Positions 4,658-24,600 of a stretch of DNA of 64,000 bases are shown piece after piece (position 1 is the first letter of the stretch; each line of letters opens with the position of its first letter). The position numbers and the translations under genes are program-made. The stretch is from Synechocystis sp. PCC 7509 (GTDB lineage: Bacteria; Cyanobacteriota; Cyanobacteriia; Cyanobacteriales; Chroococcidiopsidaceae), in contig NZ_ALVU02000001.1 of the NCBI RefSeq assembly GCF_000332075.2, forward strand, positions 3,360,324-3,424,323, given 5' to 3'. The notes below the pieces were generated by a model. That model had not been told where the DNA came from. It was given only the letters and a program-made list of their open reading frames with translations, and did no database searches.

Positions 4658-5830
4658 ATGCGTGTAATCCTGATGACAGGTAAAGGCGGAGTTGGCAAAA
4701 CCTCTGTAGCGGCGGCTACAGGGCTACGTTGTGCAGAGCTTGGCTACCGTACACTGGTATTAAGTACCGACCCCGCGCACTCTTTAGCAGATAGTTTTGA
4801 CTTAGAATTAGGACACGAAGCGCAACAAATCCGCCCTAATCTCTGGGGAGCAGAATTAGACGCTTTAATGGAGCTAGAAGGCAACTGGGGAGCGGTAAAG
4901 CGCTACATTACCCAAGTATTGCAAGCTCGTGGTTTAGACGGCATTCAAGCGGAAGAATTGGCAATTTTGCCAGGGATGGATGAAATTTTTGGTTTAGTCC
5001 GGATGAAACGCCACTACGACGAAGGCGAATTTGATGTACTAATTATTGATTCTGCGCCCACCGGAACAGCTTTGCGGTTGTTAAGCTTACCGGAAGTTGG
5101 CGGCTGGTATATGCGCCGCTTTTACAAACCATTTCAAAATATATCTGTAGCCTTAAGACCACTTGTAGAACCATTTTTTAGACCCATAGCCGGGTTTTCT
5201 TTGCCCAATAAAGAAGTAATGGATGCTCCTTACGAATTTTACGAACAAATCGAGGCTTTAGAAAAAGTATTAACCGACAATACGCAAACTTCTGTAAGGT
5301 TAGTTACCAACCCGGAAAAAATGGTAATTAAAGAATCTTTACGCGCCCATGCTTACTTAAGTTTGTACAATGTAGCAACAGATTTAGTAGTAGCAAATAG
5401 AATTATTCCCGCCGAAGTTCAAGATCCATTCTTTAAACGTTGGAAAGAAAATCAAGAACAATATCGCCAAGAAATTCACGAAAATTTCCACCCTTTACCC
5501 GTAAAAGAAGTTCCTTTATATTCCGAGGAAATGTGCGGTTTGGCAGCATTAGAAAGGTTGAAAGATACTTTATACGACAACGAAGATCCAACGCAGGTTT
5601 ATTATAAAGAAACCACCTTAAGAGTTGTTAGAGAAGAAAATCAATACAGCTTAGAACTTTACTTACCGGGTATTCCTAAAGACCAAGTTCAGTTAAATAA
5701 AACAGGTGACGAGCTAAACATTACTATTGGCAATCATCGGCGGAATTTAGTTTTGCCTCAAGCTTTAGCAGCGTTGCAACCTGCGGGAGCAAAAATGGAA
5801 GAAGATTACTTAAAAATTCGTTTTGCTTAA
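4658..5830 (+). CDS. Get3/ArsA-family ATPase with C-terminal Hsp20-like domain
   Basis: A 390-residue P-loop ATPase of the TRC40/Get3/ArsA group, which in other organisms handles tail-anchored membrane proteins or drives arsenite efflux. The deviant Walker A GKGGVGKT is at residues 8-15, followed by [15 protein letters not shown] (switch I) and [14 protein letters not shown] (switch II). Residues about 318-390 form a small beta domain ([17 protein letters not shown]) like the alpha-crystallin/Hsp20 tail that many cyanobacterial and chloroplast homologues carry. Only one ATPase half is present, so it should work as a homodimer. No arsR, arsB or arsC is adjacent, which argues against a dedicated arsenic role. 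It stands alone. Confidence 0.88.
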
Positions 5831-5990
5831 AGGTTTGATTTTTTAACTTTGGCGATCGCACTTCTTCAATCCAAGCATCCCTTGCTAGAAAATGCGAAAT
5901 CTTTTATTTTGAGGAGAGCGCATTATTATACCGATGCGTTGAGCTATGGCGATCAATTAAAATAGTTTCAATCAGCCTGAAAGAGGAGCT

Positions 5991-6266
5991 ATGGCAAAAA
6001 CATTTACGATTACTCTACCAGATGATTTGGAGCAAGCATTGACCGCCCAAGCAGAACGCTTGAACCAGTCTCCAGAGGAAATTGTTTTACAAGTAATATC
6101 ACAGCAGTTAACAACCTTACTGCCATCTAACTCAGTACCACAAGTAGAAACAGACCCACTTTTAAGACTAATTGGTTCTCTCACTATAGACGTTCCTGAT
6201 TTAGCAGAAAATCACGATTACTATATTGGACAAGCTCTGTGTCAGGAGCTAAAAGGGAATGAGTAA
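5991..6266 (+). CDS. Antitoxin of VapBC-like module 1
   Basis: A 91-residue protein with an N-terminal ribbon-helix-helix look (TFTITLPDDLEQALTAQAER, then SPEEIVLQVI), fitting a DNA-binding antitoxin that autoregulates its operon. The C-terminal half (DPLLRLIGSLTIDVPDLAEN) would neutralise the partner. AGAGGAG six bases upstream supports the ATG at 5991. Its 3' end overlaps the PIN-domain gene by 8 bp, which signals translational coupling. The family call rests on the pairing and the N-terminal pattern. Confidence 0.8.
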   Translation: MAKTFTITLPDDLEQALTAQAERLNQSPEEIVLQVISQQLTTLLPSNSVPQVETDPLLRLIGSLTIDVPDLAENHDYYIGQALCQELKGNE

Positions 6267-6675
6267 TTTGTTTGTTGATACGTCAGGTTGGGCAAGTCTT
6301 TTTGTTAATACTCAACCTTACTATCCACAAGCAGAGCGGTATTTTCGTTTAGCTGTTCAACAACAGGAAATCATTTATACAACAAATTATATAATTACTG
6401 AATTGGTAGCATTACTAAACAGCCCACTGCGAGTTGATCGCTTACGGATCTTTGAAATTGTTGATGCGATTAAAACAGTGGCTTATGTTGAGGTGATTCA
6501 TATTGATGATGAGACTGATGCTCTGGCTTGGAAACTATGCAAAAGTAGAGTAGACAAAGCTTGGTCGTTAGTTGACTGTACATCCTTCGTTGTGATGAAA
6601 CAGAAAAGTTGTCAAGAAGCGTTGACCACTGACCGACATTTTGAGCAAGCGGGTTTTGTCCGTTTACTCAAGTAA
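6259..6675 (+). CDS. PIN-domain ribonuclease toxin (VapC-like), module 1
   Basis: A 138-residue PIN-domain protein, the predicted ribonuclease of the pair. Acidic metal-binding residues are visible in order: Asp in LFVDTSGWASL (residue 7), Glu in YIITELVAL, Asp in the region VDKAWSLVDCTSF, and Asp in the terminal motif LTTDRHFEQAGF. VapC toxins cleave tRNA or rRNA; the target here cannot be read from sequence. The ATG lies inside the end of the antitoxin gene. It is clearly paralogous to the PIN gene at 7210, with which it shares the ALTTDRHFEQ motif near the end. Confidence 0.87.
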   Translation: MSNLFVDTSGWASLFVNTQPYYPQAERYFRLAVQQQEIIYTTNYIITELVALLNSPLRVDRLRIFEIVDAIKTVAYVEVIHIDDETDALAWKLCKSRVDKAWSLVDCTSFVVMKQKSCQEALTTDRHFEQAGFVRLLK

Positions 6676-10762: not shown

Positions 10763-11882
10763 ACATCAAACAATCTTTGAGACTGTAAACTACCTGTTGT
10801 TGCTGCTCTACAGACAGTTCGGGAAACATGGGTAAAGATAAGACTTGCTCTGATGCTGCTTCAGCTACGGGGAATTGTCCTAACTGATAGCCTAAATGCT
10901 CGTATACGGGCTGCAAGTGTAAAGGGCGCGGATAGTAAACCATTGAAGCAACCCCCCGCCCAGCCAACAAGTCTCGCACTTTGTCTCGCCCTTCTAGCAC
11001 CCGAATTGTGTATTGATTCCAAACGGCACTAGATCCCGCTAATTCTTGCGGTGCAACGATTCCCGGAACATGACTTAGTAAATCTTGGTAGTTAGATGCG
11101 ATCGCCCTTCTTTTTTCGTTCCAAGTGTCTAAATAGCGCAACTTTATTTGTAATATCGCCGCTTGTAAGGAGTCTAGGCGGCTATTTATCCCGTTTTCGG
11201 CGTGAATGTAGCGTTCTTTTTGCCCGTGTTCACGCAAGCTTCTAATAGTAGATGCGATCGCCGGATCGTTGGTTGTCACCGCTCCCCCATCTCCACAAGC
11301 ACCAAGGTTTTTAGTAGGAAAAAAGCTAAAACAACCCACTCTCCCAATACTACCGACTTTAAACGCTTCCCAATCAGCCCCCGTTGACTGGGCGCAGTCT
11401 TCTATTACCGCGATTTGGTGAGTAGAGGCAATTTCCATTAACTCCGTCATATTCACAGGTTGCCCAAATAAATGAACGGGGATAATTGCTTTAGTTTTAG
11501 GTGTAATTGCTGCCGCCAGAAGGTCTAAATTGAGGTTAAAAGTAGCTGCGTCAATATCGACAAATACAGGAGTTGCACCCACCGCCGCGATCGCTTCAGA
11601 CGTAGCGATAAAAGTAAAAGGAGTAGTAATTACTTCGTCACCTACGCCAATATTTAAAGCTCTCAGGGCTAAGTACAGCGCATCTGTACCCGAATTGCAA
11701 CCTATACAATGTGATACGCCGACATAATGTGCAAACTGTTGTTCAAATTCTTCAACGAGAGTTCCACCAATGTAGCGCCCAGATGCTAAGACTTTTGATA
11801 CAGTTTCGTTGACTTCCACCTCAATACTTTTGTACTGCTGTGTCAGATCGAGAGGGGGGATAAAATTCACGCTTTGACTCAT
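10761..11882 (-). CDS. DegT/DnrJ/EryC1/StrS-family PLP aminotransferase
   Basis: A 373-residue sugar aminotransferase-type enzyme. The ATG at 11880-11882 (MSQSVNFIPPLDLTQQYKSI) is chosen over an upstream in-frame start because family members begin with this motif. The PLP-binding Lys is in FFPTKNLGACGDGG (Lys191), EDCAQ provides the ring-stacking and Asp contacts (Asp162), and CNSGTDALYLAL binds the cofactor phosphate. Members transaminate UDP- or dTDP-ketosugars for lipopolysaccharide, glycan or antibiotic sugars. No other sugar-nucleotide genes are adjacent, so the substrate is unclear. Confidence 0.88.
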   Translation of the reverse strand: MSQSVNFIPPLDLTQQYKSIEVEVNETVSKVLASGRYIGGTLVEEFEQQFAHYVGVSHCIGCNSGTDALYLALRALNIGVGDEVITTPFTFIATSEAIAAVGATPVFVDIDAATFNLNLDLLAAAITPKTKAIIPVHLFGQPVNMTELMEIASTHQIAVIEDCAQSTGADWEAFKVGSIGRVGCFSFFPTKNLGACGDGGAVTTNDPAIASTIRSLREHGQKERYIHAENGINSRLDSLQAAILQIKLRYLDTWNEKRRAIASNYQDLLSHVPGIVAPQELAGSSAVWNQYTIRVLEGRDKVRDLLAGRGVASMVYYPRPLHLQPVYEHLGYQLGQFPVAEAASEQVLSLPMFPELSVEQQQQVVYSLKDCLM

Positions 11883-15649: not shown

Positions 15650-15867
15650 TTTATTAACGTTTACTTCAATCAATAGCGCTGTCGCCCACAAAACAAGTAG
15701 GCAACACTCCTAAGCAATCTGGATAATCTAGAGCAAAACTCAACGGGCTTACCACCACTCCCTGTCACTATAGTTCCCCAAAACTGCATAAAAATTGCCG
15801 AGCAACTTCGCTAGGAATGATAACTACACGAATATTAATAATTGCCCTGTGTACTTACAGTGCCTTG

Positions 15868-15973
15868 GTGTATGAATTGGTGTGTTTGGTGTAGGATAGA
15901 AAAGCGTGAAATACTTGCATTTCTTCGCGGGATGTGGCGCAGCTTGGTAGCGCACTTCGTTCGGGACGAAGGG
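15868..15973 (+). repeat. Left attachment repeat (attL)
   Basis: This copy holds about 60 bp upstream of the tRNA plus the 5' 46 nt of the tRNA sequence. It matches 24318-24423 except for three bases at about 15880-15885. Identity fades after the anticodon stem (CGAAGGG), with a further CCGCTG shared after one mismatch. Confidence 0.85.
15928..15973 (+). pseudogene. 5' fragment of tRNA-Pro(CGG)
   Basis: CGGGATGTGGCGCAGC through the anticodon arm CTTCG-TTCGGGA-CGAAG is identical to the intact gene at 24378. The T arm and 3' acceptor strand are missing: the following bases do not form a T stem or pair with CGGGATG. It is the displaced half left by integration. Confidence 0.85.
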
Positions 15974-16028
15974 TCCGCTGTTCTCAAACCCGCTCTAATC
16001 AGCCTTTTACAATCACAAATCTTTCGGT

Positions 16029-16048
16029 CGTACCAATAACGTACCAAT
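16029..16048 (+). other. Paired CGTACCAAT sites, left end (possible integrase arm sites)
   Basis: CGTACCAAT occurs at 16029-16037 and 16040-16048, in the same orientation and 11 bp apart. An identical pair with identical spacing is at 24286-24305 near the other end. Helically phased repeats inside both element ends fit accessory sites for the integrase or an excisionase. Confidence 0.55.
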
Positions 16049-16222
16049 GACCTAATATTAGCCATCAGTAAGTTAATGATCAATAGTACATTTATACTGC
16101 TTCGATCTGAATGTTATGGATGGAGACGATATTGCTAATGACGACATCAGCTTGTAGCGATCGCTTACGGCTAAACTCCCCATCAGTAGATAAACTAACT
16201 TTTATTTTTAAGTAGGCGGTAG

Positions 16223-16489
16223 TTGGGACACTATCGGCTAATTATTGGGACACTTTGGGGCATTATCAAAGACGGCTGAAACCGTTACTACATATAGTTG
16301 GGACACTATGACAGCAAAAAACGCATCAAACTTTAGCCGCCACAGAAATCACCCACAGCATTGAAGGGTATATGTTAAATATATCTAAAAAGTTTTAGTC
16401 AATTTAAAGTGGGGAAGTGTCCCACAGTTACACAGTAAGGCTTTGAGCCATTTGGTATAGTGTCCCAAAAGTGCCTCAAAGTGTCCCAT
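16223..16489. other. Iteron cluster, putative replication origin of the element
   Basis: Three copies of TTGGGACACT(A/T)T on the plus strand start at 16223, 16245 and 16298. Three copies in the opposite orientation (AGTGTCCCA core) lie at about 16415, 16457 and 16478. An AT-rich stretch (about 16370-16410) separates the two sets. Two of the right-hand copies sit in a longer direct repeat of about 30 bp whose shared end is CAGTAAGGCTTTGA (16418- and 16481-). Such iterons with an AT-rich centre are typical of Rep-dependent origins. The element also encodes its own primase-helicase. Function as an origin is inferred. Confidence 0.6.
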
Positions 16490-16630
16490 AGTTATACAGT
16501 AAGGCTTTGACTAAATAAGTCAAAAATTGAACTGAGCAATCGATATCGATACCCTCCCCATCCAATGCTGTGGGTAATAGTCGATTTCAATAAGCGGTGG
16601 TGTACTCCGTGTGTAGGCTAACTGAGTTAA

Positions 16631-16759
16631 TTAGTCCCTATCGAGGTAATCTCTAACCGCGTCTCTAACAATTTCAGAAACAGATTTCTCTAGCTCTGTT
16701 GATTTGGCTTGTAAGCGACTCATTAACCCATCGGGGAATCTTATATTGTAAGACTTCAT
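16631..16759 (-). CDS. Small ribbon-helix-helix protein, 42 aa
   Basis: The ATG at 16757-16759 opens MKSYNIRFPDGLMSRLQAKS, ending in VRDAVRDYLDRD. One beta strand (YNIRF) and two helices with SVSEIVRDAV are the pattern of the CopG/Arc ribbon-helix-helix fold. GAGAAG upstream is a good ribosome binding site and lies at the end of the preceding gene, whose stop is 7 bp away, so the two are coupled. Likely a DNA-binding regulator or antitoxin of this two-gene operon. Confidence 0.7.
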   Translation of the reverse strand: MKSYNIRFPDGLMSRLQAKSTELEKSVSEIVRDAVRDYLDRD

Positions 16760-16766
16760 CGTCTTC

Positions 16767-17168
16767 TCAGACTTTTTCACAGCGCTTTTTCTCTGCAATA
16801 AAATTGATTAAATCTTCAGCCGCTTCTGTATAGTCTATTCCGTTTGTTTCTATCACTTCATATATCTCGGACTCGCACCAAGGCTCAACCACAAAGAAAT
16901 AATCGCTAAATCCCCCGGCATAGAGTACGGAAACTTTGATAATCCCTTCAATTATTTCACCCGTTTTATAAGTGCTAATTATTCTGAACTCGTCAGCGTA
17001 GACAGCCATATCAAAATTAGGGTCGTAAACTTGCCGAACTAATTGCGCTAGACCGTCGTAATCTTCCTCGTAAGCCATTGCAGCCATATTTAAAGCTAGA
17101 TAGGTCTCTCGGTCTGATTTTGGAGGTAACAGAGCGTTTTGTTCACTTCCGTTTTTATAGTTGGTCAT
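16767..17168 (-). CDS. Hypothetical acidic protein of the element, 133 aa
   Basis: A soluble acidic protein (YEEDYDGLAQLVRQVYDPNF, VEPWCESEIYEVIETNGIDY) with no family that I recognise. AAGGG before the ATG at 17166-17168 supports the start. It forms an operon with the ribbon-helix-helix gene that follows it (7 bp gap). The order large gene then RHH could be a toxin-antitoxin pair in reverse order, or a replication-control pair. A palindromic site (17209-17226) lies just upstream of its start. Confidence 0.6.
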   Translation of the reverse strand: MTNYKNGSEQNALLPPKSDRETYLALNMAAMAYEEDYDGLAQLVRQVYDPNFDMAVYADEFRIISTYKTGEIIEGIIKVSVLYAGGFSDYFFVVEPWCESEIYEVIETNGIDYTEAAEDLINFIAEKKRCEKV

Positions 17169-17208
17169 ATTGCTTAACCCTTAGTGCTTTTGTACCTACA
17201 ATGTAGCT

Positions 17209-17226
17209 TTGTTGTACTTACAACAA
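17209..17226. promoter_or_regulatory. Palindromic operator candidate
   Basis: TTGTTGTACTTACAACAA has 7-bp perfect arms and lies about 40 bp upstream of the start of the 133-aa gene. A similar half-pattern (TTGTACCTACAA) is at 17190-17201. It could be the binding site of the RHH protein encoded downstream, which would make the operon self-regulated. Confidence 0.45.
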
Positions 17227-17457
17227 TAACCGTAACAATACTGAACTTTCTTAATGAGTTATTCCGTGCTGTTGGTAATATCGACTACATTGTTGTCTCT
17301 GTAGAAGGCGCATTAAGACACTTCAAAGCACTAACTGAAGCCATACATCTAAAGGGATAGTGAAGCCCCTTTAACACGCTTCTACGTGCCGCTTAGTTAG
17401 TTGGTTGATTGCTATCGATCAGTGGCGGCTAAGTCTCAAAATTTAAGGCAGTCTTAT
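17227..17457. other. Spacer with a weak short ORF (17184-17360)
   Basis: A frame from a GTG at 17184 to a TAG at 17358-17360 could encode 58 residues ending NIDYIVVSVEGALRHFKALT. It has protein-like composition but no ribosome binding site, and it could be the 3' remnant of a gene. Nothing else is visible up to the IS701 insertion. Confidence 0.25.
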
Positions 17458-17461
17458 ATAG

Positions 17462-18539
17462 TCAGGACTTACGCAAGGGTCATGTGAACAGATGGACGCT
17501 TGAGTTGCTCAATCAAGTAGTTTGATAGCATCCCATATTTAATCTGATAAATTGTTTGACCTGTACGATAAGCGATGGTTTTCAGACGACTCCACACCAA
17601 TAATGCGCAAGCAATATGGTTACGTTGAATTCTTGCTTTACGACATTGGCAGGCTTCAACTCCGGTCAACTGCTTTAATTGGCGGTGAAACTCCTCAATC
17701 TTCCAACGGCTGCCACACACATCTTGCACGGCATCAGTGGAAGCTTGAGCATTGTCGTTAGTGACGACGAAATCCGTTCTGTTGGTAGAAACAGTAACCC
17801 GGAAAAGTTTCATTTTTTTGTTGGCAGGAAAGCCGCGAATCTTAATAAGTTTTCCTTGCTGCAAATCCTCAGCACTCCAGACGAGTTGATCAATGCGCTG
17901 GTATGGCTGAGTGCCTCTACTATCATCCACTCGCCGATTCGTTTTGAGCGGGCAATAGTACACCTTTTGTAATTGATCGATCTGTGCCATCAATTTTTGA
18001 GTCGCATACCAGCTATCCATCAATACGGTCGTAAATGGTAACTGCGAGCTTTCCACCACGCCATTTAGCATTACCGCCGCATGATCTAGCTTGCTCTGTC
18101 CATCCCCATCAGGGTCATAGAGGCGATAATCTACCACCCAAAACTGTCCTGTTTCTCCATTAACGTACACACAGCTAATTAACCCGATGCCACGAATGAC
18201 TCGATGTTCGTTGCCACTGTACTGCCGTCGAGTTAGCTCGATTGATGCCGAATAACGTTTGTCCAACACTGTGTCGTCAAACAAGATATAGGCATTTTCA
18301 GACTCTTGTAGGAGTGGTTTTATGTTGTCCCACAACAGGTGAGGTGTCAATTTCTCGCCCCGTAAATAGCGATTGATGCGGTCGTGACTGATGCCATCAA
18401 GATGGTCAGCCAAGTTCGTCACGGTGTAGTTAATGGGGCTGCTCAACAGGTACTGGCAGTAGTCGAGTTTGGTAAAGTTCATCCCTTTAGTTTAATGGCT
18501 ACCTCTTTGCTTCCTTGCCTGTCCCTGCGTAAGTCCTGA
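17462..18539. mobile_element. IS701-type insertion sequence inside the element
   Basis: Perfect 14-bp terminal inverted repeats TCAGGACTTACGCA (17462-17475) and TGCGTAAGTCCTGA (18526-18539) enclose one intact transposase gene. ATAG at 17458-17461 recurs at 18539-18542, giving a target duplication of 3-4 bp (the boundary is ambiguous by one base). Size is about 1.08 kb. The copy looks intact and recent. Confidence 0.85.
17469..18482 (-). CDS. IS701-family transposase
   Basis: A 337-residue DDE transposase starting MNFTKLDYCQYLLSSPINYT, as in the cyanobacterial IS701 group. The first catalytic Asp is in ENAYILFDDTVLDKRYS, the second in FTTVLMDSWYATQKL, and the Glu in the SRWKIEEFHRQLKQLTGVEA region, the YREK-like box of IS4-related enzymes. 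The frame is uninterrupted and fills the element, with the stop 7 bp from its left end. It has inserted between the promoter region of the 133-aa gene and the rest of the element. Confidence 0.88.
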   Translation of the reverse strand: MNFTKLDYCQYLLSSPINYTVTNLADHLDGISHDRINRYLRGEKLTPHLLWDNIKPLLQESENAYILFDDTVLDKRYSASIELTRRQYSGNEHRVIRGIGLISCVYVNGETGQFWVVDYRLYDPDGDGQSKLDHAAVMLNGVVESSQLPFTTVLMDSWYATQKLMAQIDQLQKVYYCPLKTNRRVDDSRGTQPYQRIDQLVWSAEDLQQGKLIKIRGFPANKKMKLFRVTVSTNRTDFVVTNDNAQASTDAVQDVCGSRWKIEEFHRQLKQLTGVEACQCRKARIQRNHIACALLVWSRLKTIAYRTGQTIYQIKYGMLSNYLIEQLKRPSVHMTLA

Positions 18540-18542
18540 TAG

Positions 18543-18982
18543 TAATAATAAGAGAGTGCCTTAAGTTTCTCTGTATCGCGGTCACGGTAGACGTTTCAGC
18601 CGATAAATTACCTCTGTTTTTTAGTGTACCGCCCCTTGTGACAGTTGGGGATTACACGCAAATACTTAAGGTCTTTTTAATAAAAATCTCATGCCTAAAG
18701 ATCGTGAAGGAATTAGGCATGGCTCACGGCTACTAAGCGATCGCAATTGAACTCTGAAAATGCTGCTTAACAATGTGGTATGGGGTGAACTTAAACTTTT
18801 CAATATAAGTTTTAGTTTTATTTCTAGCTAGGTAATTTCGTATAACTTATAGGTCACTCAGCCTTACATACTCGTTTGACCCTACATATCTGCTTAAATC
18901 TCCGAAACCTATGCCGCGATCTAGTTATAACGTTTTTCTGTCTTATGGCTTTGCTCATAGCCGTCTGCAAAACCACACGTAA
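18543..18982. other. Non-coding stretch of the element with one inverted repeat
   Basis: No gene is supported here. CATGCCTAA (18690-18698) and TTAGGCATG (18713-18721) form a perfect 9-bp stem with a 14-nt loop, which may be a small RNA hairpin or an operator. The region probably carries the promoter of the replication operon. Confidence 0.35.
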
Positions 18983-19007
18983 CCTAACTATAGAGACGTT
19001 AGTTAGG
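18983..19007. promoter_or_regulatory. Operator-like inverted repeat upstream of RHH gene
   Basis: CCTAACTA (18983-18990) and TAGTTAGG (19000-19007) are perfect 8-bp arms with a 9-nt spacer. The site ends 15 bp before the ATG at 19022 and overlaps the leader, where a repressor would block transcription. The encoded RHH protein is the natural candidate to bind it. Confidence 0.5.
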
Positions 19008-19021
19008 ATTTGAGGTTTTAT

Positions 19022-19180
19022 ATGACGACTGAGCGAAAGAATAAGCGATTGCATATTGTGACGACTGCTTACGAACGTCAGCAGATTGAACAAATGAGCG
19101 ATCAGCTAGGGATGACTGTTAGCCAATTAGTACGATTAGCCGCTCAACAGTTTATTACTAACCATGCAGCAGCTAAGTAA
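19022..19180 (+). CDS. Ribbon-helix-helix DNA-binding protein, 52 aa
   Basis: The ATG at 19022 is preceded by GAGG at 8 bases. The protein reads MTTERKNKRLHIVTTAYERQ and then MSDQLGMTVSQLVRLAAQQF: a basic strand, a helix, a turn with GMT, and a second helix, which is the RHH pattern of CopG-like plasmid copy-number regulators. It sits 79 bp upstream of the primase-helicase gene, in the position expected for a replication repressor. An inverted repeat lies just upstream of it. Confidence 0.75.
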   Translation: MTTERKNKRLHIVTTAYERQQIEQMSDQLGMTVSQLVRLAAQQFITNHAAAK

Positions 19181-19259
19181 CACCCACAAATCAAAAAGAG
19201 TTGGGGGGCAACCCAACTCCAACAAATAATCTATTTCACTAATTAAAGGATACACAGCA

Positions 19260-21503
19260 ATGACTTACTCAATCCACAGTGCCATCAATAAGACAATTCA
19301 ATATATATCTAGTTTAGGGCTTTCAGCACTGCCCGTAGTACCTCAGCAACCCCAAATAAAGAACGCTGACGGTAAGCTAATTTTTACGGGTAAAAACCCA
19401 TCTTATTTTGATGCGATGGGTAAGCCCTGCACTATTAATCATAGCGAGTATGCAGACCGACAGCCGACTGATAATGAGTTGCGGCTATGGTTCTCTAGCC
19501 CTCAGACAACCGGAGTAGGAGCATTAGGCAGCGACTCAATTGTTTTTATCGATATTGACCTTAAAAACTTCGCTTCTGACTCTGAGTGTAATCGCATTGT
19601 CATGAACGAATGGTTAGCCAAGCGCTTACCGCTTCAAAGCTGTTGGAGAGAGAAAACACGCGGTGGCGGCTATCGATTGGCTGTTCGACTAAGCACCCCG
19701 GCAACATTCACCAATTTTAAATTCACCCATTTTGACAGACATTGTGGAGAAGTAATCGGTAAAGGTAGATTTGCTGTATTAGCTCCTACTCCGGGTTATA
19801 AACAGCAGACAAGCTATGGCATTGTCAGCATAGACTCTCTAGATAGCGTGGGTATAATCTCTACTAAGACTGTTAAAGAGCCGCTTAAACCGTTATCAGA
19901 AGCGCCTACACCTCTAAATACACAGACAGCCATACAACCGCCTAATTCCGGGGGTGGAGCATCTGTTAGTATCTACAGTGTTTGCTCTCAATCTGTAAAA
20001 GATTTACTCAATTCTACTTTACCGCCAACAGATAGAAGCCTAGCCATTACTAAAGTCATCAAAGAGCTTTACGGATGGCAAAACTATCTATCTAAAGAAG
20101 GTAAGCACCTTAACGAATCTATCGACGACATCATTAAAAATTACGCGGAATGTTGTGGGCTAGAACCCTACAAACTTGCTCGGATTAAATCTAGCATCGA
20201 CCTAGATAGGTGTCAACCGTCTAAATCGATTTACGCTGACGGTAAGTTTCAGCCGCTTCATATGACGGCAGAAAAGAATGTTATTTCTTATCTGTCAGCT
20301 ATGGAGCGATCGCCCCGCTACAATACCCTAACCCTTTCTGTGGAATATGAAGGGCAGTCAACTACAGCCGCATCGCTGATTGAGCTTAAAGAGCGGATGT
20401 ATTTAGATGTTGGAGTCGTTAACCTTCGTAAGGTGTCGTTAGCTAATAAAGAGTGGGCTGATGCTGTCGTTGATTGGGCGATCGCTAACAACTCCTACAG
20501 CCCGATTGCTGAATACTTGAACAGCCTACAACCCACCGCCTCCGATGTTTTAGATGAATTAGCGGAACGAATGGGGATAGTAGCGGCTGAAAAGGTTTGG
20601 CTGACTAAGTGGCTGCTGCAATGTGTAGAGCGTCCACTAAATAGCGGATGCGATGCCCCTTATATGTTGGTGTTTCACGGTTCTCAAGGCTGCGGCAAGA
20701 CGTTCACACTCAACACCATAGCTAAACAGTGGTTTATTATTCTCAACCCTAAAAACGCCGTTGGCAAAGACGGGCTGATGCTATTCCATAGAGGTTGGGT
20801 TATCTGTAACGATGAATTATCGACCTTATCTAAATATGATATCGAGTCGCTAAAGTCTGAGATTACGACGACTGTTGATGCCATTCGGCTTCCTTATAGG
20901 GCTGATGTACAGCAGATGAGGCGCTCATCTGTTCTTTGTGGCACAACTAACAACGCTGAATTTCTCAAAGACGGTACGGGCAATCGTAGATTTTTAGTGG
21001 TTCACTTTCGCAATACCTTTACAGCCGATGACCGGGAATGGCTAAACGCTAATGTTGATAGGCTATGGAGTCACGTAGTACACCTAAAACAGTCCGGCGT
21101 TGATTATCACTTAACTGATGTAGAGGCATCCGCGCTGATTGAGACTCAAAAGAGCTATCGGGTGCTGACAGAAACAGACGAATTGGTTATCAGGGCGATC
21201 AAATGGTGGCTATCTAACACGCCTACAAAGACATTGCCGATCGCTGTTACAGACTTAACAACTCTAACCAAACAGTGCGGGGGTAAGCTAACCACCCAAA
21301 GAGTTAGTAAGACGCTCAAAGGTTTAGGGTTTGAAACTGATCGTATTGGTCGCGGCACAGATAAGCGAACAATCGTGCTGAATCCCCACATCGTAAATGA
21401 ATTTGTGGACGTACCAATCAGTAGTAACTTTAGTGCTTTCGGCATCACGCTTAACAAAGATTCTGTTGGCACTGAGTCAACTAACGGCGATCTAGCTTTT
21501 TAA
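19260..21503 (+). CDS. Replication protein: PrimPol plus VapE-like helicase
   Basis: A 747-residue two-part protein. The N-terminal third resembles bifunctional primase-polymerase (PrimPol) domains: VFIDIDLKNF supplies the DxD metal site (about residue 98), REKTRGGGYRLAVR and GEVIGKGRFAVLAPTPGY follow. The C-terminal half is an ATPase of the virulence-associated E (VapE/VirE) type, with Walker A GSQGCGKT at about residues 475-482, the acidic CNDELSTLS, and TTNNAEFLKDGTGNRRFLVV as sensor and arginine finger. Such fusions replicate satellites and plasmids. AAAGGA precedes the ATG at 19260. Together with the iterons it makes the element a likely autonomous replicon when excised. Confidence 0.85.
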   Translation: MTYSIHSAINKTIQYISSLGLSALPVVPQQPQIKNADGKLIFTGKNPSYFDAMGKPCTINHSEYADRQPTDNELRLWFSSPQTTGVGALGSDSIVFIDIDLKNFASDSECNRIVMNEWLAKRLPLQSCWREKTRGGGYRLAVRLSTPATFTNFKFTHFDRHCGEVIGKGRFAVLAPTPGYKQQTSYGIVSIDSLDSVGIISTKTVKEPLKPLSEAPTPLNTQTAIQPPNSGGGASVSIYSVCSQSVKDLLNSTLPPTDRSLAITKVIKELYGWQNYLSKEGKHLNESIDDIIKNYAECCGLEPYKLARIKSSIDLDRCQPSKSIYADGKFQPLHMTAEKNVISYLSAMERSPRYNTLTLSVEYEGQSTTAASLIELKERMYLDVGVVNLRKVSLANKEWADAVVDWAIANNSYSPIAEYLNSLQPTASDVLDELAERMGIVAAEKVWLTKWLLQCVERPLNSGCDAPYMLVFHGSQGCGKTFTLNTIAKQWFIILNPKNAVGKDGLMLFHRGWVICNDELSTLSKYDIESLKSEITTTVDAIRLPYRADVQQMRRSSVLCGTTNNAEFLKDGTGNRRFLVVHFRNTFTADDREWLNANVDRLWSHVVHLKQSGVDYHLTDVEASALIETQKSYRVLTETDELVIRAIKWWLSNTPTKTLPIAVTDLTTLTKQCGGKLTTQRVSKTLKGLGFETDRIGRGTDKRTIVLNPHIVNEFVDVPISSNFSAFGITLNKDSVGTESTNGDLAF

Positions 21504-21604
21504 CTAAAAACTTAAGTCAATCTTCTGATGGTCAATGCGATCGCACATCAGAAGATTGATACCCAAAAAGGCGATCGCTTACTCTATATACAGGAGTTAC
21601 TCAT

Positions 21605-22120
21605 ATGGCACTAAAATACAATAAAGAAGAAGGCAAATGGGGCAAAGAGGCAGAGCGTTATGTACTTCAGCTATTGCGTGAGCAGGGATTAGATGCGTCT
21701 ATGCCTGAGCTTTCCTTTGCTAACTCTGCCGACTACGCGAGGTATGAACATGACCTCGTAGTAGCCGATAAAGAAGACCCAAATAAAACAATAATTGCAG
21801 AGGTCAAACGACGGCGTAAACGATTTAATACTCACCTAAACTATCCACACCCCACAGTAATTGTAGATGCTTGCAGTACCTATGATTCTAAGGTGAGAAA
21901 ACCTTTCATGTATTTTATAGTAGATGAAAATTTGACAAGTGTTTTTGCTGTACCGGGACAATCTCGTAAGCATTGGAGCAGGGTACAGTTGTTCAATGAT
22001 CAGAAAAAAGAAAAGGAAGTCTATTATACTTGTCCTGTCGAGCAATGCCTCAGTTTTGACAACGCTTTTTTTCTTGTTAAAGCCTTTTTATCATCTAAGA
22101 AGCCTGATGTATCTACATAA
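21605..22120 (+). CDS. PD-(D/E)XK-like nuclease
   Basis: A 171-residue protein with the order expected of restriction-endonuclease-like folds: a helix with an early Glu (WGKEAERYVLQLLREQGLDA), then EHDLVVADKE (catalytic Asp), then IIAEVKRRRKRF (the ExK pair), then beta strands (KPFMYFIVDENLTSVFAVPG). This suggests a metal-dependent DNA nuclease, perhaps a Holliday-junction resolvase or restriction-type enzyme. It follows the replication gene by 100 bp in the same direction and may process replication intermediates. The specific family is not recognised. Confidence 0.6.
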   Translation: MALKYNKEEGKWGKEAERYVLQLLREQGLDASMPELSFANSADYARYEHDLVVADKEDPNKTIIAEVKRRRKRFNTHLNYPHPTVIVDACSTYDSKVRKPFMYFIVDENLTSVFAVPGQSRKHWSRVQLFNDQKKEKEVYYTCPVEQCLSFDNAFFLVKAFLSSKKPDVST

Positions 22121-22188
22121 AACAAAATCGCTCTTACACAAAAACTGTAGCGGCGACCACTTAAGGTATCTCCATATGATGATTGCTG

Positions 22189-22380
22189 TTACAAAGCACT
22201 AACTGTTAAGTAATGGGTTGTTACCTTACCGTCACGCTCTGAGACGTATTTAAGGTAATCGGCATCTTTTGGCTCTACTGTGGTCGCAATGTGTAGAAAT
22301 TCATCACACCCGCCCTGCTCAATTATTTCTCGATATTCAGCCATGACATCTTGCTCAGTCTTTTTATTTGTAGCTTTCAT
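22189..22380 (-). CDS. Small hypothetical protein, 63 aa
   Basis: An acidic protein (MKATNKKTEQDVMAEYREII) with a helical start, preceded by GGGAGG six bases before the ATG at 22378-22380, a strong ribosome binding site. No known motif is seen. It is transcribed against the replication genes, so it may be a separate control gene of the element. Confidence 0.5.
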   Translation of the reverse strand: MKATNKKTEQDVMAEYREIIEQGGCDEFLHIATTVEPKDADYLKYVSERDGKVTTHYLTVSAL

Positions 22381-22591
22381 TTACTGCCTCCCAATAGGAA
22401 TTAAGATAGTCGAACTCCTACAGAAAAATTCTAGCACACCATTAATTTAGGATATTTGACGCTTCAAGACGGTTGGATTATATGTATGTGGTGCGTCAAC
22501 GCTCTCAATCCTTTTACAAGTGGAGTCTTAATTTGCCGCTTTATACTTCACGAACTATGTTTTGATGGGCTATCTGTACGAAATTGTCACA

Positions 22592-22699
22592 ATGCCCCAT
22601 ACTCCTCAGTACATCCACGAAGCGTTGAAACAATCCGCTAACGAGTTAAATACAACTCATCACGACTTAATTAATGCCATACTTGCCGAATGGCTATAG
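22592..22699 (+). CDS. Possible small RHH-like protein, 35 aa
   Basis: MPHTPQYIHEALKQSANELN followed by THHDLINAILAEWL has the spacing of a ribbon-helix-helix second half (helix, turn, helix). It lies 23 bp upstream of the 97-aa gene in the same direction. There is no clear Shine-Dalgarno sequence, and it is shorter than usual, so it may be a fragment. Confidence 0.35.
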   Translation: MPHTPQYIHEALKQSANELNTTHHDLINAILAEWL

Positions 22700-22722
22700 A
22701 ATAGAAAATAACGGACAAAACA

Positions 22723-23016
22723 ATGAAAAAAGTTTTAATCGCTTCTTTAACTATCGCTGTTGGAGTTTTTGCCGGAAACGAGCTAATTTCTTTTAAAAAC
22801 TCCCCAAATACTTATTTTCTTAGTGACGCTCAAAGAGCTAAACGAGCGGCAATAGAAAACTGTAAAGCCGAAATGACTAAAACGGTACAGGTAATCAACC
22901 AAAGCGCAGAACTTCATAATCAACGAATAGTATCGCTAGGAGGGGAATTTAACGATGGTTTCCCTGAAATGGGGGACAAGGAACTTGAGGAGCGATGCAA
23001 AAACGTTCGTTACTAA
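22723..23016 (+). CDS. Hypothetical secreted or membrane-anchored protein, 97 aa
   Basis: It has a typical signal or anchor segment at the N terminus (MKKVLIASLTIAVGVFAGNE), then a helical region with two Cys (CKAEMTKTVQV and ERCKNVRY at the end). Function is unknown. It is the last plus-strand gene of the element and is followed by a strong hairpin terminator. Confidence 0.55.
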   Translation: MKKVLIASLTIAVGVFAGNELISFKNSPNTYFLSDAQRAKRAAIENCKAEMTKTVQVINQSAELHNQRIVSLGGEFNDGFPEMGDKELEERCKNVRY

Positions 23017-23031
23017 ATGATCACAACAACT

Positions 23032-23056
23032 AACCCACCCCTAACAACGGTGGGTT
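23032..23056 (+). terminator. Rho-independent terminator
   Basis: AACCCACC (23032-23039) pairs with GGTGGGTT (23049-23056), loop CCTAACAAC, followed by TTGCTT. It lies 16 bp after the stop of the 97-aa gene. Confidence 0.75.
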
Positions 23057-23133
23057 TTGCTTAACCTAGGATTACTTATACTTTATATTACTTATGGCAC
23101 TACCGACGGAAGCGGCGATCGCATCTGTATACT

Positions 23134-24282
23134 CTAGCCCAAAACGTCGGGCAAAGATGGGCGGTTAATCATATGCCCGTAAGTCTTCATTACCATTGTC
23201 ATATCGCTATGCCCTAGTAAATAAGCGACCCCCGTTGGTGGCACTCCCTTCTCTATAGCAACTGATGCTAAAGTGTGACGAATAGCATACGGCTGTCTGT
23301 AACTGATACCCAAGCCTTCTAAAACTACCCGCCATTGTCTCCTAATAAATGCACGGTCGTCTATAGGGTTGCCAAGGGGTGAAGTGAAAACTAAGTCATC
23401 AGCAGATAGACCGTCTATCCGTTCATCTAACAACTTCCTAAGCCGTGTGGTCATTGTAAGATAACGAATACTTCCGGTTTTAGTCTCTTTCCTCACTCTA
23501 GCCGCGCCGTTAGTTTGACCGCGATCGCCACGCCCTAACACTGAACAGATTACAATCTCATTACGCTCTAAGTTGATATGGCGACGCTGTAAACCTATCG
23601 CCTCCGATGGTCGGCATCCGGTGAGAAATAAAAACTCGACATAATCAGCATAGTGGCTATGGAGATAAGCTGAAGACTTAGGACAGAATTTATTAGCCCG
23701 AAATGCCGTAACGATCGCGGCTGTCTCCTCAGCGTTAAACGGCTGTATCGGCTTTTTAACTACCTTTCTACGCTTAACTACTGTGTAGGGGTTGCGGCTA
23801 AGTAATCCTTTATCTACAGCCCATCGCATACAGCTATTTAGATAGCGTAAATAGTCGTTGAAGATACGGGGGGCATACTCTAAGCGCTCAAACCAAGTAA
23901 CATCGTCTAGCTGTGGGTTAGCCTTTTCTATATGACGCAAAATAGCTTTGTAGTGTCCGTTGCGGGTACGTTCAGATAGCTTTAGTGACATAACCCATTC
24001 ATTCCACAGTGGCAGTAAATAGAGGTCTTTAGCCTCTCCTAGAGCGAGTTTCGCTGTCTTAGTCGGTACGGAATTGGTACGATACTTATCTAGCGACGGG
24101 TCAAAGTAACCCCCTAGCATATCTAATTCAATCTCAGAAACGATTTTCTGAGCGGCTTTTAGATTGATTTTGTTGTAGGGCAAACCCAAAGCCAAACAGT
24201 ACCGTTCTCCTCTAAATGACCATCTAAGCCGCAAGCGATCGCAGTTATTCTTTATGGCTACATTGCCTTTTGCCGTTTTCAT
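23134..24282 (-). CDS. Tyrosine recombinase (integrase) of the element
   Basis: An integrase of about 382 residues starting at the ATG at 24280-24282 (MKTAKGNVAIKNNCDRLRLR). The in-frame extension to 24405 would run through the tRNA gene and is rejected. The N-terminal arm/SAM-like domain includes RNGHYKAILRHIEKANPQLD. The catalytic domain has Arg in LTGCRPSEAIGLQRR, Lys in the beta hairpin near VRKETKTGSIRYL, YAIRHTLASVAIEKG (box II, first His replaced by Tyr), LLGHSDMTMVM and the nucleophile in KTYGHMI. The start lies right beside the CGTACCAAT pair, so integrase binding could repress its own promoter. Confidence 0.9.
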   Translation of the reverse strand: MKTAKGNVAIKNNCDRLRLRWSFRGERYCLALGLPYNKINLKAAQKIVSEIELDMLGGYFDPSLDKYRTNSVPTKTAKLALGEAKDLYLLPLWNEWVMSLKLSERTRNGHYKAILRHIEKANPQLDDVTWFERLEYAPRIFNDYLRYLNSCMRWAVDKGLLSRNPYTVVKRRKVVKKPIQPFNAEETAAIVTAFRANKFCPKSSAYLHSHYADYVEFLFLTGCRPSEAIGLQRRHINLERNEIVICSVLGRGDRGQTNGAARVRKETKTGSIRYLTMTTRLRKLLDERIDGLSADDLVFTSPLGNPIDDRAFIRRQWRVVLEGLGISYRQPYAIRHTLASVAIEKGVPPTGVAYLLGHSDMTMVMKTYGHMINRPSLPDVLG

Positions 24283-24285
24283 CGT

Positions 24286-24305
24286 CGTACCAATTCCGTA
24301 CCAAT
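24286..24305 (+). other. Paired CGTACCAAT sites, right end (possible integrase arm sites)
   Basis: CGTACCAAT at 24286-24294 and 24297-24305, in the same orientation and 11-bp spacing as the pair at 16029-16048. It ends 12 bp before attR and abuts the integrase start codon. Confidence 0.55.
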
Positions 24306-24317
24306 TCGGGGCTAAAA

Positions 24318-24423
24318 GTGTATGAATTGATGGCTTTGGTGTAGGATAGAAAAGCGTGAAATACTTGCATTTCTTCGCGGGATGTGGCGCAGCTTGGTAG
24401 CGCACTTCGTTCGGGACGAAGGG
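24318..24423 (+). repeat. Right attachment repeat (attR)
   Basis: The second copy of the 106-bp repeat, here leading into the intact tRNA-Pro gene. The element thus supplies about 60 bp of upstream sequence and the 5' half of the tRNA, while the chromosome supplies the 3' half. Confidence 0.85.
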
Positions 24424-24451
24424 GCCGCTGGTTCGAATCCAGTCATCCCGA
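24378..24451 (+). tRNA. tRNA-Pro (anticodon CGG)
   Basis: A 74-nt cloverleaf with acceptor CGGGATG/CATCCCG, D stem GCGC/GCGC, anticodon stem CTTCG/CGAAG with loop TTCGGGA (anticodon CGG, reading CCG), T arm GCTGG-TTCGAAT-CCAGT (5-bp stem with one mismatch-free pairing) and discriminator A. CCA is not encoded. It serves as the integration site of the element to its left, which rebuilt its 5' half and promoter region. Confidence 0.93.
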
Positions 24452-24552
24452 CTTAAATTGTAGAGGTCTTATCTTTACTCATTGTGAAGTTTAAGATGTT
24501 GAGGAGATAGACATAGCTTGAAAAGTTGCATCAAATCATTCTCCTTACTCCT

Positions 24553-24600
24553 TTAAATAAATCCCCCAACATCTTTAAAGACATTGGGGGATTTATTTAA
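24553..24600. terminator. Strong bidirectional hairpin terminator
   Basis: Perfect 17-bp arms starting TTAAATAAATCCCCCAA (24553-24569) and ending at 24600, with a 14-nt loop. A/T-rich outer parts give U-tracts on both strands. It can end tRNA transcription from the left and the minus-strand YciI gene from the right. Confidence 0.75.

What the first reader, a model, noticed from the sequence alone, without database searches (positions are those of the whole stretch)
15868..24423. Replicating satellite-like element in tRNA-Pro(CGG) whose att repeat restores the 5' half of the tRNA
Seen: 106-bp direct repeats at both ends, a 5'-half tRNA copy on the left and an intact tRNA on the right, an inward-facing integrase, PrimPol-VapE-like replication protein, nuclease, RHH genes and an iteron cluster. 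No relaxase, capsid, portal or terminase is present. Classical islands restore the 3' end of a tRNA. Here the element carries about 60 bp of upstream sequence plus 46 nt of the 5' half, so it must replace the promoter region as well. Prochlorococcus tycheposons are a cyanobacterial comparison for tRNA-based elements with tyrosine recombinases, and P4/PICI satellites for the replication core; relationship to either is inference.
Basis: partly seen in the sequence, partly recalled or inferred. Interest (0 to 1): 0.85.

Follow-up and report, generated by a model that had tools for sequence, protein, structure and literature searches.

The report
Mobile element rebuilding a tRNA's front
A small mobile DNA element in this cyanobacterium has inserted into a tRNA gene the unusual way round, supplying the gene's front half and its promoter region instead of its back half, and related elements do the same at other tRNA genes.

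Summary
A 113-nt direct repeat (60 bp of upstream DNA plus 53 nt of tRNA, the first 46 identical) flanks an 8.45-kb element: a 5'-half fragment on the left, intact tRNA-Pro(CGG) on the right. Paired motifs that look like integrase arm sites lie inside both ends. In 94 distinct related integrases scored, 66 sit in the conventional way, 3' of an intact tRNA. Seven loci, this one included, have the 5' half and upstream DNA supplied by the element (Pro-CGG twice, Pro-GGG, Val-GAC twice, Val-TAC, Leu-CAA); the displaced 5' fragment was found in six of the seven. Pre-insertion sites in relatives prove it for two: the ancestral promoter, or its -35 part, stays with the fragment and element DNA takes its place. 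Two sister species keep integrase remnants upstream of the same tRNA. Best reading: recombination in the anticodon arm with reversed polarity, flipped repeatedly in this family. Islands with 5' tRNA fragments are a catalogued minority (159 of 3919) and archaeal pTN3 acts alike, so this is a new variant of a known kind. 'Satellite' is not shown: replication genes are present, but no hijacking or packaging gene was found.

The parts
15868..15980 (+). attL-side repeat: displaced upstream DNA plus 5' part of tRNA-Pro (tRNA part 15928-15980)
   Evidence: (113 nt, 96%)
16029..16048 (+). arm-like motif pair CGTACCAAT-NN-CGTACCAAT, left end
   Evidence: 3 matches in 64 kb, 0.02 expected; a shared paired motif also at both ends of G550 and G421, G017 and the own tRNA-Ala element; binding by the integrase is inferred
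16224..16488 (.). six TGGGACACT repeats, three per strand: candidate replication origin
   Evidence: 0.22 expected; function inferred
16631..16798 (-). ribbon-helix-helix (CopG/Arc-like) protein
   Evidence: RHH_1 E 2.7e-6
16767..17168 (-). 133-aa protein, no match in the libraries searched
17462..18539 (-). IS701-type insertion sequence (transposase 17469-18482) inside the element
   Evidence: 17-nt inverted ends, 94%; IS701 model E 5e-123
19010..19180 (+). ribbon-helix-helix protein, NikA-like
   Evidence: E 7.9e-7
19260..21503 (+). primase/VapE-type helicase, 747 aa
21605..22120 (+). 171-aa protein, possible PD-(D/E)XK nuclease by motif only
   Evidence: no match; model unusable
22189..22380 (-). 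63-aa protein, no match in the libraries searched
22723..23016 (+). 97-aa protein, no match in the libraries searched
23134..24282 (-). tyrosine integrase, 382 aa; its start faces the 5' end of the tRNA
   Evidence: geometry
24062..24081 (-). third arm-like motif pair, inverted, inside the integrase gene (2 mismatches)
24286..24305 (+). arm-like motif pair, right end, between integrase start and repeat
24318..24430 (+). attR-side repeat: element-supplied upstream DNA plus 5' part of the intact tRNA
24336..24365 (+). promoter-like pair TTGGTG-18-AATACT (7 of 12, weak) inside the repeat; the block is conserved in three congeners
   Evidence: not found by the stricter scan
24378..24452 (+). intact tRNA-Pro(CGG)

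Best explanation
An integrative replicon of about 8.45 kb entered the anticodon arm of the tRNA-Pro(CGG) gene by tyrosine-integrase recombination. Its circular attP carries a copy of the tRNA's upstream region and 5' half on the integrase side. Integration pushes the chromosome's own upstream region and 5' half to the left end and rebuilds the gene at the right end from element-supplied upstream region and 5' half plus the chromosomal 3' half. Relative to the tRNA the integrase works in the orientation opposite to its usual one. The near-palindromic anticodon arm allows this, and the element keeps whichever gene half its attP then needs. Shown: the sequence outcome, the paired motifs, recurrence at other tRNA genes, and replacement of the upstream region at pre-insertion sites of relatives. 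Inferred: crossover in the anticodon loop, present excision, plasmid-like replication from the iterons, and expression of the rebuilt tRNA from an element-borne promoter.
For: Repeat and intact/fragment arrangement. Paired motif at both ends, 3 in 64 kb against 0.02 expected. Closest relative found, G550 (integrase 61%, a gene 30% identical to VapE): intact tRNA-Val(TAC) at the integrase side, 47 nt of 5' tRNA plus 68 bp upstream at the far end, the same motif at both ends. Further 5' cases with both ends: G335 Leu-CAA, G012 Val-GAC, G016 Pro-GGG, G064 Pro-CGG. Pre-insertion sites: G038 aligns straight through G064's upstream DNA (1062 bp, 95.9%) into the tRNA, overlapping at the 56-bp repeat; G006 and G012 do the same for G016. 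In G064 and G016 the -35-like region before the intact tRNA is element DNA, not the ancestral one. Congeners G002 and G004 keep an integrase start and arm-like motifs (degenerate in G004) directly upstream of tRNA-Pro(CGG) with no element. 5' fragments end at nt 39-47 (53 here); 3' fragments start at nt 25-37 except two at tRNA-Ala from nt 7 and 13: the common part is the anticodon arm.
Against: No clean pre-insertion site exists for the window's own element: the nearest congener, G005, shares the left START gene and the tRNA but has a 2.4-kb gene between them, and its right flank differs. The two window copies of the upstream region are almost the same, so here the promoter change would be small, and the promoter-like match is weak (7 of 12; nothing there). 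G064 shows no direct paired motif at its two ends, only inverted 10-mers. G335 also holds an inverted 37-nt copy of its tRNA's 3' part between tRNA and integrase, which the model does not explain. Excision and expression cannot be seen in a sequence.
Confidence: 0.88

Rival explanations
1. A conventional island that restored the 3' half, whose ends look reversed because of a later rearrangement or a second, older island.
For: The same integrase family mostly sits in the conventional way (66 of 94 rows). G016 shows its two ends 1.15 Mb apart and inverted. The genome holds a 3'-restoring relative at tRNA-Ala. G335 has an extra inverted 3' tRNA piece.
Against: The fragment contains the 5' half and upstream DNA, which a 3' island does not leave. 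The same arrangement recurs at other tRNAs, in G550 with the same motif at both ends, and pre-insertion sites show 5' insertions.
Confidence: 0.05
2. A phage satellite (P4 or PICI-like) that is packaged by a helper phage.
For: Size, integrase and VapE-type replication protein fit; VapE matches 586 phage records weakly, among them a Streptococcus satellite phage and Synechococcus phage S-LBS1.
Against: No capsid-size, packaging, terminase or helper-control gene by Pfam, PHROGs, NCBIfam or PADLOC. A scan for close relatives in viral contigs gave none for the integrase and one for VapE, at 32%. VapE relatives lie in cyanobacterial plasmids too.
Confidence: 0.15
3. A mobilizable or plain integrative plasmid without a virion stage, replicating from the iterons with the VapE protein and moving by another element's transfer machinery or by transformation.
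For: Iterons, replication protein, NikA-like RHH gene, plasmid-borne VapE relatives (80 plasmid records).
Against: No relaxase found; the NikA-like match may simply be a generic RHH fold; no oriT was tested.
Confidence: 0.45
4. The element is no longer mobile and the arrangement is a fossil.
For: An IS701 copy lies inside it and no near-identical copy was found: best other integrase in the genome 43%.
Against: Integrase and replication genes are open and full length, the repeats are 96% identical, and the paired motif is perfect at both ends.
Confidence: 0.3

Closest known systems
Islander-type genomic islands with a 5' tDNA fragment (159 of 3919 in PMC4383910, passages seen)
   Same: Integrase element between an intact tRNA and a displaced 5' fragment; anticodon-centred att sites are one of the catalogued types
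   Different: Nothing on promoter replacement or integrase polarity was seen in the passages read; here pre-insertion sites and scars show the first in one integrase family
Archaeal pTN3/TKV4 elements (PMC8371274, PMC5495485, passages seen)
   Same: att corresponds to the tRNA 5' half, the rebuilt tRNA is cut off from its own promoter, and chromosome inversions are linked to the integrase
   Different: Archaeal integrase whose gene is split by integration; here the integrase stays whole, and in most cases the repeat holds tens of bp of upstream DNA as well
Conventional tRNA islands of the same cyanobacterial integrase family (for example L109, L122)
   Same: Same integrase family and tRNA species, even the same tRNA-Val(GAC) gene in G006 (3' side) and G012 (5' side)
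   Different: Those restore the 3' half and leave the original promoter in place
P4/PICI phage satellites
   Same: Small, integrase plus VapE/primase-type replication protein
   Different: No helper-exploitation genes recognised here
Tycheposons (known here only from passages of PMC10872708)
   Same: tRNA border and tyrosine recombinase
   Different: No metabolic cargo recognised; recombinase kinship not tested

Membership tests
Genomic island in a tRNA gene (Islander criteria) | Intact tRNA and a terminal fragment of it in the same orientation, 5' fragment upstream, integrase between, 2-200 kb | tested here: met
   criteria from passages
Genomic island in a tRNA gene (Islander criteria) | Crossover in the anticodon loop or the T-stem/junction subsites | tested here: inconclusive
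   5' and most 3' fragments overlap in the anticodon arm; strand exchange not mapped
5'-half tRNA elements (pTN3-like in what they do) | Rebuilt tRNA lies downstream of element DNA instead of its original promoter | tested here: met
   Shown at pre-insertion sites for G064 and G016; in the window it follows from the repeat, without a clean pre-insertion site
pTN3-like archaeal integrases | Integrase gene split by integration | tested here: not met
   int 23134-24282 is one open frame
Phage satellite (P4/PICI) | Genes that redirect helper packaging or capsids | tested here: not met
   none recognised; four proteins have no match at all
Phage satellite (P4/PICI) | Helper-dependent transfer in virions | not testable with these tools
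   needs induction experiments
Tycheposon | tRNA border plus tyrosine recombinase | tested here: met
   definition from passages
Tycheposon | Recombinase belonging to the tycheposon lineage | not tested
   no reference set used; original paper not seen
Mobilizable element | Relaxase | tested here: not met
   none
Mobilizable element | oriT | not tested
   no search made

The most novel reading that the evidence does not exclude
One integrase family has repeatedly flipped its orientation relative to the tRNA anticodon arm, and with it which half of the gene the element must supply. All four combinations (orientation by which attP arm carries the tRNA half) occur in cyanobacteria, one of them by a single case. 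In the 5'-restoring state the element takes over the promoter of a host tRNA gene; in this genome it is the only full match to that tRNA found. Deletions that remove the element but spare its end fix the foreign promoter, as in the G002 and G004 scars, so mobile elements can permanently rewrite tRNA promoters and hold the host to their integrase end.
Probability: 0.45. Interest if true: 0.75.

Novelty: new variant of a known kind. Interest (0 to 1): 0.58.

Why it matters
tRNA genes are among the commonest docking sites for bacterial mobile elements, and the standard account is that the host keeps its promoter. Here a bacterial integrase family shows the mirror image in a traceable way, with pre-insertion sites, scars and several geometries side by side. 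That makes it testable how integrase polarity evolves, whether elements control expression of host tRNA genes, and how the promoter of a conserved gene can come from a mobile element. It also separates integrase expression from tRNA read-through, which ICEKp1 exploits (PMC13023037, abstract seen).

Tried and rejected
Tried without result. (1) No close relative of the integrase in viral contigs (this tool finds close relatives only) and one VapE relative at 32%. (2) AlphaFold model of the 171-aa protein unusable, so no fold search was run. (3) No PDB-sequence match for it; PADLOC gave one match at E 0.009 for an RHH gene, which I disregard. (4) The consensus scan found 13 promoter-like sites in 15700-24600 against 18 in shuffles, none in the repeat; the pair cited is a weak match from my own looser scan. 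(5) The left tRNA fragment does not fold better than shuffles. (6) The elements at G544 and G403 did not resolve to tRNA sites. (7) Shared end motifs: found in the window, G012, G017 and the own tRNA-Ala element, but for G064 only inverted 10-mers.

Considered and rejected: a chance repeat (113 nt at 96%); a 3' island seen in reverse (see rivals); a duplicated tRNA without an element (integrase, end motifs and pre-insertion comparisons speak against it).

Corrected on the way: and 76 rows were labelled 'conventional' by default, and one (L139) was wrong: a 3' fragment of tRNA-Lys lies nearest its integrase. One search relabels all rows from the data: 66 conventional, 8 with the 5' end of an intact tRNA facing the integrase (6 counted as 5'-restoring, 2 with a full tRNA at both ends), 5 with a 3' fragment facing it, 6 convergent, 9 unassigned. 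Polarity (66 against 13 rows, 15 left out) then needs at least 6 changes; it was 5 and 4 on the smaller tree. The 'restored half' count of 5 was not redone. The trees are the quick kind without bootstraps.

Rows dropped: two long-branch integrases (L107, L154) were left out of the tree; identical proteins were merged. Only fetched loci were scored: 90 and 26, duplicates included, fewer than the matches.

Papers seen but not used for the argument: PMC10865867 and PMC9897764 (passages).
Full report
WHAT IS THERE. A 113-nt repeat (96%) lies at 15868-15980 and 24318-24430. It holds 60 bp of upstream DNA (57 identical) and 53 nt of tRNA (52 identical, first 46 identical). ARAGORN calls one tRNA in the window, Pro(CGG) at 24378-24452. 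The integrase (23134-24282, minus strand) starts 95 bp from the 5' end of that tRNA and reads into the element. Inside are two RHH genes, a primase/VapE-type protein of 747 aa, four small proteins without family matches, and an IS701 copy. The 'nuclease' remains a guess from a motif.

END MOTIFS AND ORIGIN. The pair CGTACCAAT-NN-CGTACCAAT occurs at 16029-16048 and 24286-24305 without mismatch and, with two mismatches and inverted, at 24062-24081 inside the integrase gene. Chance expectation for 64 kb is 0.02. The position fits integrase arm sites inside both ends; that is inference, supported by shared motifs at both ends of G550 and G421 and of G012, G017 and this genome's own tRNA-Ala element. 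G064 showed no such direct motif. Six TGGGACACT repeats, three per strand, at 16224-16488 (0.22 expected) are a candidate origin.

THE SITE IN RELATIVES. Of five other genomes of the genus in the 60-genome search, G002, G004 and G005 carry tRNA-Pro(CGG) with the same conserved upstream block as both window copies; G003 has a different upstream region, and G001 shows only an 80% match. In G002 and G004 the block is preceded by the first codons of an integrase like the window's (degenerate in G004) and by arm-like motifs, with no element: scars of the same kind of element at the same tRNA. G005 has neither element nor scar. It shares the START-domain gene on the left, but with a 2.4-kb gene in between and a different right side, so it is not a clean pre-insertion site. 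At E 1e-30 the replication protein has a relative in 15 of 291 genomes of the order, the window's own included, and in none of the other five of the genus.

THE INTEGRASE FAMILY. Relatives were found in 89 of 291 genomes of the order (E 1e-30) and 27 of 386 across the phylum at a stricter cut-off (E 1e-38). Of 94 distinct integrases scored, 66 have an intact tRNA upstream whose 3' end faces the integrase, the conventional state; 8 have the 5' end of an intact tRNA facing the integrase; 5 have a 3' fragment facing it; 6 are convergent with the tRNA; 9 are unassigned, among them L102 (G064), whose integrase is interrupted by another transposon and which I assigned by hand.

FIVE-PRIME CASES. Shared 5' tRNA nucleotides and shared upstream bp between the two ends: window Pro-CGG 53 and 60; G550 Val-TAC 47 and 68; G335 Leu-CAA 45 and 117; G012 Val-GAC 39 and 77; G016 Pro-GGG 39 and 24; G064 Pro-CGG 41 and 11 (15 by BLAST). 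A seventh, G005 Val-GAC (L065), shows one end only because its contig stops; G001 and G002 match it only from 22 bp upstream of the tRNA onward, so the upstream DNA beyond that is probably element DNA. G421 (Val-GAC) and G542 (Ala-CGC) have a complete tRNA at both ends and are not counted. G550 is the closest relative: integrase 61% identical, a gene 30% identical to VapE, 5' geometry and the same end motif, but another tRNA. In G335 an inverted 37-nt copy of the tRNA's 3' part also lies between tRNA and integrase; I cannot explain it.

PROOF BY PRE-INSERTION SITES. G038 aligns without break through G064's left flank (5361-6422, 95.9%) into the tRNA, and from the repeat onward with G064's right side. 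So in G064 the ancestral promoter region stayed with the fragment and the intact tRNA has an unrelated upstream region. For G016, the sites without element in G006 and G012 match the fragment side over thousands of bases and the tRNA side from 24 bp upstream; the -10-like part is shared and the -35-like part is element DNA. For G012, the fragment side already carries the element-type upstream region while G006 has a different one, which I read as an earlier round of takeover. The window resembles G012: both copies carry nearly the same block.

A TWO-BY-TWO SCHEME. Two traits describe the set: which way the integrase faces the tRNA, and which attP arm carries the tRNA half. Conventional elements supply the 3' half on the integrase side. 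The window, G550, G335, G012 and G016 face the other way and supply the 5' half on the integrase side. This genome's own tRNA-Ala element, G017, G174 and G584 face the other way but supply the 3' half at the far end. G064, a single case, faces the usual way and supplies the 5' half at the far end. 5' fragments end at nt 39-47 (53 in the window, one mismatch); 3' fragments start at nt 25-37 except two at tRNA-Ala (nt 7 and 13), so the common part is the anticodon arm. On a quick tree the window, G550 and G421 group together (SH-aLRT 99), and orientation needs at least 6 changes. G006 and G012 carry elements on opposite sides of the same tRNA-Val(GAC) gene, and G009 has a 3'-side element at tRNA-Pro(CGG).

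HOW IT LIKELY WORKS. The free circle would carry, in order, integrase start, right arm sites, promoter region, 5' half, crossover, left arm sites, iterons. Recombination with the anticodon arm of a whole tRNA gene gives the window's arrangement. Unlike ICEKp1, where the tRNA promoter drives the integrase (PMC13023037, abstract), here tRNA and integrase are divergent from a shared 95-bp region that also holds the end motif, so the integrase needs its own promoter and may repress itself. These steps are inference.

LITERATURE. Islander: 3760 islands with a 3' fragment and 159 with a 5' fragment of 3919 (PMC4383910, passages). A review states that with very few exceptions the rebuilt bacterial tRNA keeps its original promoter, citing Williams 2002, and that pTN3-like archaeal integrases use the 5' half (PMC8371274, passages; PMC5495485, abstract and passages). 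Williams 2002 itself is not held. A related idea is the island family in the 5' end of dusA, a protein gene (PMC4482086, start of abstract in the listings). In the listings of searches (15 of 110 shown), 41, 45, 83 and 84 I saw no paper on 5'-restoring tRNA elements in cyanobacteria or on polarity flips within one integrase family; the library is partial and most entries were seen as titles and abstract beginnings only.

VERDICT. A real, probably mobile integrative replicon with a rare but known kind of tRNA use, here in a variant that can be followed across a family. 'Satellite' is unproven.

Noticed in passing
L097 about 14528 to L217 9752 (own genome C1, about 877.5-888.8 kb): A second element with a related integrase (43%) in the same genome, at tRNA-Ala(CGC), restoring the 3' half, with its own end motif TTGCATAAA at both ends.
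   Followed up: partly
L224 14082-14144 and L219 9924-9986 (G016): The two ends of the tRNA-Pro(GGG) element lie 1.15 Mb apart in opposite orientation, as if an inversion had run through the element; compare the integrase-linked inversions reported for pTN3.
   Followed up: partly
L262 (G421) and L263 (G542): Elements with a complete tRNA gene at both ends (117- and 158-bp repeats, 100% identical), so two intact tRNA genes flank them.
   Followed up: partly
L265 (G335), 81-117 and 302-338 bases before the integrase start: An inverted 37-nt copy of the 3' part of tRNA-Leu(CAA) lies between the intact tRNA and the integrase.
   Followed up: no
L102 6558-9571: The integrase of the G064 element is interrupted by a transposon (TnpB-like and resolvase-like genes by appearance, not scanned).
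   Followed up: no
L271 1838-1892 and about 11717-11771 (G403): A related integrase whose 55-bp repeat is not in a tRNA; possibly a protein-coding target.
   Followed up: no
L043 6076-14451 (G009): A conventional 3'-side element at tRNA-Pro(CGG) with a shortened, 30%-identical integrase match: the same tRNA species used from the other side.
   Followed up: partly
window 24062-24081: A copy of the end motif lies inverted within the integrase coding sequence, which may bear on self-regulation.
   Followed up: no
L125 and L126 (G101): Two related integrases about 21 kb apart on one contig, at tRNA-Ala(CGC) and at a fragment of it: perhaps a tandem array.
   Followed up: no
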